Positions 23,577 to 25,469 of a stretch of DNA of 64,000 nt are shown here, in pieces. Made by a program: the position numbers and the translations under genes. This stretch comes from Salinivirgaceae bacterium (lineage in GTDB: Bacteria > Bacteroidota > Bacteroidia > Bacteroidales > SZUA-534): positions 62,001 through 126,000 of the forward strand of contig JAFVGW010000003.1 in assembly GCA_017474765.1 (NCBI GenBank), in the 5' to 3' direction. The notes below the pieces were generated by a model. That model made no database searches, was not told the DNA's origin, and worked only from the letters and a program-made list of their open reading frames with translations. The stretch's first letter is position 1; the number at the start of each line of letters is the position of its first letter.

Positions 23577-23622
23577 TGTGCGCGGATTTGACTGATTTAC
23601 ACAGATTTCACACAAAAGAAAC
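23577..23622. repeat. Dispersed ATCTGTG-type repeat, copy 4 (reverse)
   Basis: The reverse complement reads AAATCTGTGTAAATCAG, matching the copy at 10959-11003. Confidence 0.6.
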
Positions 23623-23650
23623 TGCTCGTAGCCGCAATTTTGAATATTGG

Positions 23651-23719
23651 ATTTTCCGTTTATGGCGTTCCACGAAGCATAAATTTTTGGCGTTCTTGGA
23701 ACGGTATGAACGGATTTTT
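23651..23719. repeat. 69-bp direct repeat, left copy
   Basis: This 69-bp block is 65/69 identical to 25176-25244, in the same orientation. Inside it CCGTTTATGGCGTTCC and GGAACGGTATGAACGG form an imperfect 16-bp inverted pair (13 of 16 paired). It begins 82 bp after the SGNH stop and ends 9 bp before the stop of the reverse-strand ATPase gene. Confidence 0.85.
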
Positions 23720-23728
23720 AAGCGATTG

Positions 23729-25144
23729 TCAGGCAAAAAAATCGTTGAGTTTTATTACCTTCTGAACCGAAAACCGATACATTCCGTTGGTTATTCCGTA
23801 AGGCGTAACCATAACAAGATGAGGACTTTTACGCGATTTTGAAAATTCGATGAATGATGCGGCCTTGTGCCTTAAGTTTTCGTCGTCTTGCTTTGTGATT
23901 TCGTATTTATCGGTTGAGAATTTCATTTCACAAATATTCACGACATTATCGGCGCGGTCGATAACCATATCAATCTGTGCGCCCGACGTTTCTTCGTTGC
24001 CCTTTACTTGCCAAGCATAAACGCTCGACGATATTCCTGAAATCCCTAAAGTGGTTTTTATCTGATTGATATGCAAGAAACTAACTCTTTCAAAAGCAAG
24101 TCCCTGCCAGACATTGCGCACGGGCGTGTTGATGCTCGAAGTCCAGAAACTTTCATTCGTAGCATCGGAATTTTGAATAAACTTATAATAGAAAAGTGTG
24201 TAATTATCAATAAGTTGGAATAAAAACTTACTACGTTTTACCCCCGCAAGGCTATATTTTCGGATAAAATCGCAGTTTTCAAGGTCTTCCAAAACTCGTG
24301 TCAGTTGCCCGCTGCTCGAAATACCTGGTTGGGCAATGAGTTCTTCGCGTGTCATCCCCATCTTTTTCCCACCTAAAGCCAAAACAACATTCATATATGG
24401 CTCGGCATTTCTGAATAGCGAATTGTAAAGTTCATTGTACTCGTTGCGCAGTTTTCCGTTTCTATTAAAGAATAGATTGTCAATATTTTGCGATATACTA
24501 CACTCGCGGTTCAAGAGCGACCAGTAATATGGAACACCGCCCATCACCATATAACATTCAAGTATTTCGTGGCGGTTTACTGACAAATGCTGGCTCTTTG
24601 CATAAAGTTCGCACTCTTTGAGGCTGAACGGCGAAAGATGAATCCTGTGAGTTACTCTGTTGTAAAGTCCGCCGTGGTTTCTGAAGACGTTTTTCACTAT
24701 CCACGAAGTTGCCGAGCCGCAGATTATCAGCAAAATATCTTTTCGTGCCGAAGCATAACCGTTCCAAAAGTGTTCCAGAGCCGACACAAAATCGGATTTG
24801 GGTGCGTCCATCCACGGCAACTCGTCGATAAAAACCACTTTTTTCCCCGCGGGCATACCATCCAGAAACTCGGAAAGCAGAAAAAACGCGTCGAACCAGT
24901 CTTCTGGCACCCTGCATTTCTTCATTCCGCACTTCAATAGCGATTTTCTGAACTCTTGCAACTGGACTTTCGTTTTCTGATTGGCCAGCCCTGAATGTTG
25001 GAAAGCGAATTTGTAGGCGAAAGTTTCCCTTATCAGAAATGTCTTTCCGATTCGCCGCCTACCAGTAACTGCCACAAATTCAGAATATTCTGATTTGTAG
25101 GCGTCCAAGAGTTCCCTTTGCTCGTTTTTGCGCCCTACTATCAT
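23729..25144 (-). CDS. ATPase with nuclease-like C-terminus (DUF234/archaeal ATPase type)
   Basis: A 471-residue protein: N-terminal AAA-type ATPase with Walker A GRRRIGKTFLIRE and Walker B VVFIDELPWMD, then the winged-helix-like middle (LTRVLEDLENCDFIRKYS), then a PD-(D/E)xK-like C-terminus (QIDMVIDRADNVVNICEMKF: Asp then Glu-x-Lys). This matches the DUF234/archaeal ATPase family; the role (DNA repair, defence or regulation) is unknown. ATG 25144 (MIVGRKNEQRE) is preferred; the frame runs on to 25198 into the right direct repeat. It is AT-richer than its neighbours, lies on the opposite strand between two + strand operons, and is bracketed by 69-bp direct repeats, all pointing to acquisition. 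Confidence 0.85.
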   Translation of the reverse strand: MIVGRKNEQRELLDAYKSEYSEFVAVTGRRRIGKTFLIRETFAYKFAFQHSGLANQKTKVQLQEFRKSLLKCGMKKCRVPEDWFDAFFLLSEFLDGMPAGKKVVFIDELPWMDAPKSDFVSALEHFWNGYASARKDILLIICGSATSWIVKNVFRNHGGLYNRVTHRIHLSPFSLKECELYAKSQHLSVNRHEILECYMVMGGVPYYWSLLNRECSISQNIDNLFFNRNGKLRNEYNELYNSLFRNAEPYMNVVLALGGKKMGMTREELIAQPGISSSGQLTRVLEDLENCDFIRKYSLAGVKRSKFLFQLIDNYTLFYYKFIQNSDATNESFWTSSINTPVRNVWQGLAFERVSFLHINQIKTTLGISGISSSVYAWQVKGNEETSGAQIDMVIDRADNVVNICEMKFSTDKYEITKQDDENLRHKAASFIEFSKSRKSPHLVMVTPYGITNGMYRFSVQKVIKLNDFFA

Positions 25145-25175
25145 AATCGCTGTTTTTACAACACAAAAATAGTAA

Positions 25176-25244
25176 ATTTTCCTTTTATAGCGTTCCACGA
25201 AGCATAATTTTTTAGCGTTCTTGGAACGGTATGAACGGATTTTT
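25176..25244. repeat. 69-bp direct repeat, right copy
   Basis: The partner of 23651-23719, with 4 mismatches. It lies 31 bp upstream of the ATPase start. It includes the same 16-bp imperfect inverted pair (CCTTTTATAGCGTTCC with GGAACGGTATGAACGG). Just right of it (25245-25469) is AT-rich DNA with no gene seen. Confidence 0.85.
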
Positions 25245-25469
25245 GGCGGTGGATTAATAGATAATTTATTGAATATGTGGTGTTTTACATTTCAAACTAT
25301 CACAATTAAAAAAGCAATTAGGAACGCATGGTGTTCGGTTGGGTTGGAACGCGGATTGAACCTATTTGCACAATCTAATTGTTTGAGTGCGCAATTGATA
25401 AATCGATAATCAGCCACATTTTCAACTTTTCCCCTTAAATTTACCGCGCATAAAAATCGATTGCGAAAT

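What the first reader, a model, noticed from the sequence alone, without database searches (positions are those of the whole stretch)
23651..25244. ATPase/nuclease-like gene bracketed by 69-bp direct repeats
Two 69-bp blocks, 94% identical and same-oriented, flank a reverse-strand gene of a different base composition within a + strand region. This looks like an inserted module, a non-autonomous mobile unit or a duplicated boundary used for recombination.
Basis: partly seen in the sequence, partly recalled or inferred. Interest (0 to 1): 0.6.

Follow-up and report, generated by a model that had tools for sequence, protein, structure and literature searches.

The report
Nuclease gene bracketed by matching palindromes
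This is a one-gene, come-and-go DNA cassette from a rumen-type gut bacterium that encodes a predicted ATP-driven DNA-cutting protein and sits between two copies of a palindrome that belongs to the gene itself; relatives across several phyla keep a matching palindrome in front of the same gene, which suggests that a very common 'candidate anti-phage' gene family carries its own recognition site.

Summary
The repeat is real: 65 of 69 bases identical, extending to 77 nt, and nowhere else in this 3.6-Mb genome. The gene is a 471-aa AAA ATPase with a C-terminal PD-(D/E)XK nuclease (PADLOC candidate PDC-S27, E=2e-198). Each repeat is a 60-nt imperfect palindrome. The copy before the gene abuts its promoter (TAnnTTTG box); the other begins 9 nt after the stop codon.

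This is a family trait. In 110 non-redundant homologous loci, 34 repeat their upstream palindrome just after the stop codon (0.9% expected; 30 direct, 4 inverted). The upstream palindrome is far more general (stem score >=12 in 49% against 1.3% of neighbouring genes), has a family-wide dyad consensus, and co-diversifies with the protein even where the surrounding DNA is unrelated.

The module is polymorphic: two same-genus genomes lack gene and both repeats here.

Best reading: a horizontally moving defence-type or selfish gene that brings its own operator, with the second copy marking its end and permitting precise loss. Protein-catalysed mobility is possible but not shown. I found no published description of these palindromes.

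The parts
23729..25144 (-). 471-aa AAA ATPase + PD-(D/E)XK nuclease, PADLOC candidate PDC-S27
   Evidence: PF01637 3.6e-10 and PF13173 1.2e-7; PDC-S27 2e-198; AlphaFold2 model pLDDT 91.9
24485..25144 (-). ATPase core (about residues 1-220), Walker A residues 28-35, Walker B 105-108
   Evidence: invariant columns in a 51-sequence alignment; Foldseek: P. abyssi ATPase 2qen, then Orc1/Cdc6, TnsC
24170..24412 (-). middle helical domain with a two-strand wing (about residues 245-325), possible winged-helix DNA-binding part; boundary approximate
   Evidence: secondary structure of the model and Foldseek matches that extend over Orc1/Cdc6 chains, including DNA-bound ones; DNA-binding role inferred
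23732..24142 (-). PD-(D/E)XK nuclease domain (residues 335-471), D392, D399, E406, K408 invariant
   Evidence: alignments; model pLDDT 94.1; Foldseek: AF1548, P. abyssi repair endonuclease 2vld, R2 endonuclease, N.BspD6I, FokI
25168..25244 (-). upstream repeat copy (U), 77 nt
25180..25239 (-). U palindrome core, 60 nt, -95 to -35 from the start codon
   Evidence: this locus; the same palindrome in the 98% ortholog; family-wide upstream palindrome enrichment
25164..25171 (-). promoter -7-like box TATTTTTG (TAnnTTTG) between palindrome and start codon
   Evidence: sequence; the motif peaks at -50 to -30 across the family, median 13 nt downstream of the palindrome
23643..23719 (-). downstream repeat copy (D), 77 nt, starting 9 nt after the stop codon, no promoter box next to it
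23655..23714 (-). D palindrome core, 60 nt
   Evidence: for the ortholog
23577..23642 (.). about 65-75 bp outside D that is also absent from the empty allele (exact edge blurred by a short repeat, CGGTTTGG / CGGTTGGG)
   Evidence: comparison with G005 and G009
25245..25345 (.). about 100 bp outside U that is also absent from the empty allele
   Evidence: comparison with G005 and G009

Best explanation
This is a self-contained single-gene cassette of the PDC-S27 family: palindrome - promoter - ATPase/nuclease gene - palindrome. The palindrome is the gene's own cis-element, most likely bound as duplex DNA by the ATPase protein itself (AAA core plus putative winged-helix part). The copy over the -33 region of the gene's promoter would let the protein hold down its own expression, which a chromosomal nuclease needs. 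A second, promoter-less copy of the palindrome directly after the stop codon, present in about a third of family members, closes the cassette. The cassette spreads horizontally as a defence-type or selfish gene and enters intergenic hot spots; recombination between the two direct palindromes deletes the gene and leaves one palindrome. SHOWN: the architecture, the family-wide palindrome and its position, co-diversification with the protein, presence/absence, and single-palindrome alleles. INFERRED: binding by the encoded protein, autorepression, anti-phage or selfish benefit, direction of change (gain or loss), and movement by host recombination rather than by the protein.
For: (1) Bracketing: 34 of 110 non-redundant loci repeat their own upstream palindrome after the stop, against 0.9% for mismatched pairs; D starts a median 8 nt after the stop, U ends a median 38 nt before the start. 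Any flanking direct repeat: 44% of 108 loci against 1.9% of 265 neighbouring ORFs. (2) Upstream palindrome of stem score >=12 in 49% of family genes against 1.3% of 313 control ORFs, with a shared dyad pattern: A/T at 19-22, C at 13, AAA at 9-11, A/T tract at the centre. (3) Co-diversification: at 60-80% protein identity 40-62% of pairs share the proximal element and none share distal flank. (4) 152 base-paired positions changed on both arms against about 11 expected for independent arms. (5) Palindrome lies a median 13 nt upstream of a TAnnTTTG box; the box follows U in 31 of 43 bracketed loci but D in 1 of 43. (6) Homology between relatives in unrelated contexts often runs from the outer palindrome edge to the stop codon, or to the outer edge of D. 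(7) Empty and single-palindrome alleles. (8) Other occupants of the same site match the PADLOC models UzuA and PDC-M13. (9) The upstream palindrome is also present in complete isolate plasmids: Butyrivibrio pNP243 and Emticicia pEMTOL01.
Against: No binding, expression or phage data. The bracket copy is absent in about two thirds of members, so it is not needed for function. The direct bias (30:4) is not explained by an operator role alone. At the window's own site the empty allele has no palindrome, and the inserted block includes about 65-75 and 100 bp outside the repeats. Palindromes were selected for pairing, so the covariation count is partly circular. Most loci are metagenome bins.
Confidence: 0.5

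Rival explanations
1. A self-mobilising element: the ATPase-nuclease recognises the two palindromes as its ends and itself cuts and moves the cassette, in the way that a TnsA-like nuclease and a TnsC-like ATPase, or a TnpA acting on end hairpins, move their elements.
For: Tight packing (D median +8 after the stop), direct orientation 30:4, homology between unrelated contexts ending at palindrome edges, e.g. L072/L073 from -93 to +58, exact single-palindrome alleles, PD-(D/E)XK plus AAA architecture with TnsC among the Foldseek matches, and the co-evolving cis-element expected of an end and its enzyme.
Against: No near-identical copies within a genome: the nine full-length own-genome members are at most 55% identical to each other; two thirds of members have no second palindrome; no clean target duplication; the insertions at the window site and at L005 extend beyond the palindromes; TnsC is a weak match among many AAA proteins.
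Confidence: 0.22
2. A restriction-modification-like module moved by insertion with long target duplication (Kobayashi model); the repeats are duplicated target DNA.
For: 16 of 110 loci have a long flanking repeat outside the promoter region, many non-palindromic (L088 202 bp, L057 118 bp; L091 116 bp), far above background 0.1%; insertion with long target duplication is described for such modules (Nobusato 2000, cited in PMC3031569).
Against: For the window class the repeat travels and diversifies with the gene across unrelated contexts, which target DNA would not do; the window's empty site holds no copy of it.
Confidence: 0.12
3. The palindromes are bidirectional transcription terminators that insulate the gene.
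For: Stable hairpins, some followed by T-runs.
Against: U lies upstream of the promoter box and so would not be transcribed from it; terminators need not share sequence with each other, follow the protein phylogeny or keep a sequence consensus at fixed distances from the dyad.
Confidence: 0.06
4. An IS200/IS605- or REP/RAYT-like passenger: the hairpin ends are acted on in trans by a HUH transposase.
For: Imperfect palindromes at both ends in the same orientation resemble IS200/IS605 end hairpins (PMC6006769, found, and own knowledge).
Against: No transposase gene inside the unit; the palindrome is not multi-copy in the genome; it follows the ATPase phylogeny, which a trans-acting transposase would not require.
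Confidence: 0.04
5. The downstream palindrome is only the decayed promoter region of a second, lost cassette in a tandem array.
For: Tandem arrays exist: L214 reads A A gene1 B B gene2 A.
Against: D has the promoter box in 1 of 43 cases against 31 of 43 for U.
Confidence: 0.06

Closest known systems
PDC-S27 (PADLOC phage-defence candidate, ATPase_2/AAA_14 + PD-(D/E)XK)
   Same: Full-length match (2e-198); ATPase fused to PD-(D/E)XK as described for PDC-S27 (PMC12988326).
   Different: The two papers that name it, in the passages I read, call it a single-gene candidate and mention no palindromic cis-element or bracketing repeats; function untested.
Archaeal SSO1545 / PABY2304 ATPases (PF01637, DUF234-type)
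   Same: Best fold match 2qen; a homologous member in Wolbachia phage WO is annotated 'archaeal ATPase, fused to C-terminal DUF234 domain'.
   Different: Flanking palindromes of archaeal members were not examined here.
Restriction-modification gene complexes with long flanking duplications (Kobayashi model)
   Same: Defence-type single module, flanking direct repeats, presence/absence polymorphism (cited in PMC3031569).
   Different: Here the window-type repeat is a palindrome that belongs to the gene and co-evolves with it.
RAYT/REP and IS200/IS605 elements
   Same: A gene bracketed by imperfect palindromes.
   Different: No HUH transposase in the unit; palindrome not multi-copy; palindrome overlaps the promoter.
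Integron gene cassettes (attC)
   Same: Single genes separated by imperfect palindromes in one orientation, tandem arrays possible (L214).
   Different: Only weak resemblance; no integrase in the unit, the attC core motif was not tested, and each gene carries its own promoter-proximal palindrome.

Membership tests
PDC-S27 / ATPase_2 + PD-(D/E)XK | full-length match to the family model | tested here: met
   PDLC04984 2e-198 over residues 2-470
PDC-S27 / ATPase_2 + PD-(D/E)XK | intact Walker A and B motifs | tested here: met
   G28, R29-R31, G33-T35, D107, E108 invariant in 51 sequences
PDC-S27 / ATPase_2 + PD-(D/E)XK | PD-(D/E)XK nuclease domain with catalytic residues | tested here: met
   D392, E406, K408 invariant; fold matches to AF1548, 2vld, R2, N.BspD6I, FokI, mostly weak but consistent
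PDC-S27 / ATPase_2 + PD-(D/E)XK | anti-phage activity | not testable with these tools
   no phage data; literature says candidates await validation
Transposable element with defined ends | terminal repeats that recur with the gene in unrelated contexts | tested here: met
   for the subset with D
Transposable element with defined ends | insertion ends exactly at the terminal repeats, with or without target duplication | tested here: not met
   window and L005 insertions extend about 40-110 bp beyond the palindromes; met only by the single-palindrome alleles
Transposable element with defined ends | several near-identical copies in a genome | tested here: not met
   own-genome full-length members at most 55% identical; repeat found only at this locus
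IS200/IS605 or RAYT/REP | HUH tyrosine transposase in the element, palindromes multi-copy | tested here: not met
   the only gene is the ATPase-nuclease; two copies per genome
Integron cassette | attC core motifs, integrase in the genome | not tested
   no search was made; dyad consensus
Insertion with long target duplication | empty site contains one copy of the repeat | tested here: inconclusive
   zero copies at the window site; one copy at the L006 site and, with a rearranged right flank, the L004 type

The most novel reading that the evidence does not exclude
A new class of minimal mobile element: a single protein in which an Orc/TnsC-like AAA ATPase and a PD-(D/E)XK nuclease recognise a cognate palindrome at both ends of their own gene and catalyse excision and integration, with thousands of genes now annotated as antiviral defence being this element. 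The bracketing of DUF4143 ATPase-nuclease genes in the same genome (14 of 28 with flanking direct repeats, 4 of them promoter-proximal) would make it a general principle of single-gene ATPase-nucleases.
Probability: 0.18. Interest if true: 0.9.

Novelty: new variant of a known kind. Interest (0 to 1): 0.6.

Why it matters
PDC-S27 is among the most frequent single-gene 'defence systems' counted in archaea (3,503 loci) and rumen bacteria (2,865 loci), yet nothing is known of how it works (PMC12988326, PMC13356809). A conserved, gene-specific palindrome over its promoter gives the first concrete DNA ligand to test, and the bracketing copies with single-palindrome alleles show how the gene can be lost precisely. 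If the protein acts on these sites, the family changes from 'defence gene' to a self-recognising or self-moving nuclease module.

Tried and rejected
Further copies of the window repeat: none elsewhere in the own genome or, beyond the G007 ortholog, in the other relatives searched, apart from one 19-nt match, so it is not a dispersed repeat of the REP type. PDB sequence search: no hit. NCBIfam: no hit. Paper searches for palindromes or repeats around these ATPases found nothing relevant. D copy as leftover promoter of a second cassette: rejected. Terminator reading: U lies upstream of the promoter box. Empty-site search with the L007 flank found no orthologous site. Tree by phylum: phyla largely cluster, so the tree gives no strong proof of inter-phylum transfer. 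The search for PF09820 relatives gave one own-genome copy without repeats.

Full report
OBSERVATION. The two blocks are real: 65 of 69 bases identical, same orientation, extending to 77 nt at 91%. No other direct repeat of this strength exists within 5 kb anywhere in the window, and the sequence occurs only twice in the 3.63-Mb genome. The gene between them (25144 to 23729, minus strand) has 42.8% GC against 56.8% and 53.5% for its neighbours, a GDSL-like protein and an ABC transporter ATPase.

THE PROTEIN. 471 aa; ATPase_2 and AAA_14 in Pfam; full-length PADLOC PDC-S27, 2e-198. In 51 homologs Walker A, Walker B and D392, D399, E406, K408 are invariant. The AlphaFold2 model (pLDDT 91.9) matches the archaeal ATPase 2qen first, then Orc1/Cdc6 initiators including origin-DNA-bound ones, and TnsC lower down. 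The C-terminal 137 residues, modelled alone (pLDDT 94.1), match PD-(D/E)XK enzymes: AF1548, the P. abyssi repair endonuclease 2vld, the R2 endonuclease, N.BspD6I, FokI; most single matches are weak but they agree. The papers that count PDC-S27 describe it as ATPase plus PD-(D/E)XK with function untested.

THE REPEAT IS A PALINDROME THAT BELONGS TO THE GENE. Each copy folds as an imperfect palindrome; the cores are 25180-25239 (U) and 23655-23714 (D). I collected homologous loci. A flanking direct repeat of alignment score >=22 is present in 44% of 108 family loci and in 1.9% of 265 neighbouring ORFs. Restricting to the promoter-proximal element, 34 of 110 non-redundant loci repeat it after the stop codon, against 0.9% for mismatched U/D pairs; 30 are direct and 4 inverted; D starts a median 8 nt after the stop and U ends a median 38 nt before the start. 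The upstream palindrome is more general than the bracket: stem score >=12 in 49% of family genes against 1.3% of control ORFs. Centred on the dyad, unrelated members share a pattern: A/T at 19-22, C at 13, AAA at 9-11, an A/T tract at the centre, typical total length 45-54 bp. The palindrome ends a median 13 nt before a TAnnTTTG box, the Bacteroidetes -7 motif (own knowledge), so it covers the -33 region and is not in the mRNA from that promoter. The box follows U in 31 of 43 bracketed loci and D in 1 of 43, so D is a bare palindrome and not a second promoter.

CO-DIVERSIFICATION. For pairs at 60-70% and 70-80% protein identity, 40% and 62% share the proximal element while none share flank 200-300 bp upstream. 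Between homologous elements 152 paired positions changed on both arms with pairing kept, against about 11 expected if the arms were independent. That number is inflated by choosing good palindromes and by shared ancestry, but within one locus U and D of L073 also differ by such a paired change. In several pairs in unrelated contexts DNA homology runs from the outer palindrome edge to the stop codon (L096/L081, L080/L096, L075/L086), or from outer palindrome to outer palindrome (L072/L073, -93 to +58). Complete isolate sequences show the upstream palindrome too: Butyrivibrio plasmid pNP243 and Emticicia plasmid pEMTOL01; a Wolbachia phage WO copy has two tandem palindromes. The D copy itself is labile: it needs 23 changes on the family tree (shuffled mean 36), and D-less sisters keep U.

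PRESENCE AND ABSENCE. At the window's site G005 and G009 have the same neighbours with a 126-bp spacer and no palindrome at all; the block they lack includes about 65-75 bp outside D and about 100 bp outside U. G003 and G004 carry other modules there (PADLOC UzuA plus PDC-M13 type; PDC-M13 type plus an unassigned gene) and G008 has different DNA, so this is a hot spot for such genes. At the paralogous locus L006 (filled in G000 and G008), G002 and G007 keep exactly one palindrome with left flank from U and right flank from D2, both flanks about 96-98% identical. For the L004 type, G000, G003 and G009 are filled, G008 has no repeat, and G002 and G007 have one repeat copy at a synteny change next to tilS. 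At L005 the empty alleles have no palindrome. Tandem locus L214 reads A A gene1 B B gene2 A, where B is the palindrome type of gene2's own relatives. Which allele is ancestral was not established at any site.

MECHANISM. Best supported is a DNA element bound by the gene's own product: a symmetric site over the promoter gives autoregulation of a nuclease, the second site closes the module, and recombination between the two direct copies removes the gene and leaves one palindrome. Binding, repression and the agent of recombination are inferred. Self-mobility is the leading rival: in favour are the tight packing, the 30:4 direct bias and exact single-palindrome alleles; against are the absence of near-identical copies in a genome (at most 55% among nine own full-length members), the missing D in two thirds of loci, and the ragged outer ends of the window and L005 insertions. 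A separate set of loci (16 of 110) has long repeats outside the promoter region, many non-palindromic, which resemble insertion with long target duplication.

BEYOND THE FAMILY. The own genome holds 28 DUF4143 hits; 14 have flanking direct repeats, and in four (L235, L236, L244, L259) the repeat is promoter-proximal and recurs directly after the stop codon, as here.

LIMITS.

Noticed in passing
own genome loci L234-L261 (DUF4143), e.g. L235, L236, L244, L259: 28 DUF4143 hits in one genome; half are flanked by direct repeats, four with a promoter-proximal element repeated right after the stop codon, so the bracketing extends to a second ATPase-nuclease family.
   Followed up: partly
L138 1489-3729; L142 2460-4213: The window's insertion site holds other defence-type modules in sister genomes: DUF3990/PDC-M13 with a UzuA-like protein, and DUF3990 with an unassigned 327-aa gene.
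   Followed up: partly
L106, -277 to -65 upstream of its gene: Four tandem copies of the upstream palindrome with a period of about 50-53 bp and no copy after the gene.
   Followed up: no
L196 337-2741, also L194 and L197: An HpaII-type restriction-modification pair sits next to the repeat of the L004-type cassette, at the truncated 3' end of a gene, in same-genus genomes with different right-hand context (G008 has the pair but lacks the repeat).
   Followed up: partly
L088, L091, L057, L054: Family members bracketed by long direct repeats (about 100-200 bp) that lie outside the promoter palindrome; look like long target duplications.
   Followed up: partly
L268 (Wolbachia phage WO, MN180249.1): A PDC-S27 gene lies just downstream of phage head-tail preconnector genes, preceded by two tandem palindromes.
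   Followed up: partly
L004 1088-1200 and L006 200-410: Short stretches next to the cassettes recur at many places in all same-genus genomes (dispersed intergenic repeats), possible landing zones.
   Followed up: no
L058 and L061: At what looks like an orthologous site U and D are more alike within each genome than between genomes, which hints at concerted evolution of the two copies.
   Followed up: partly
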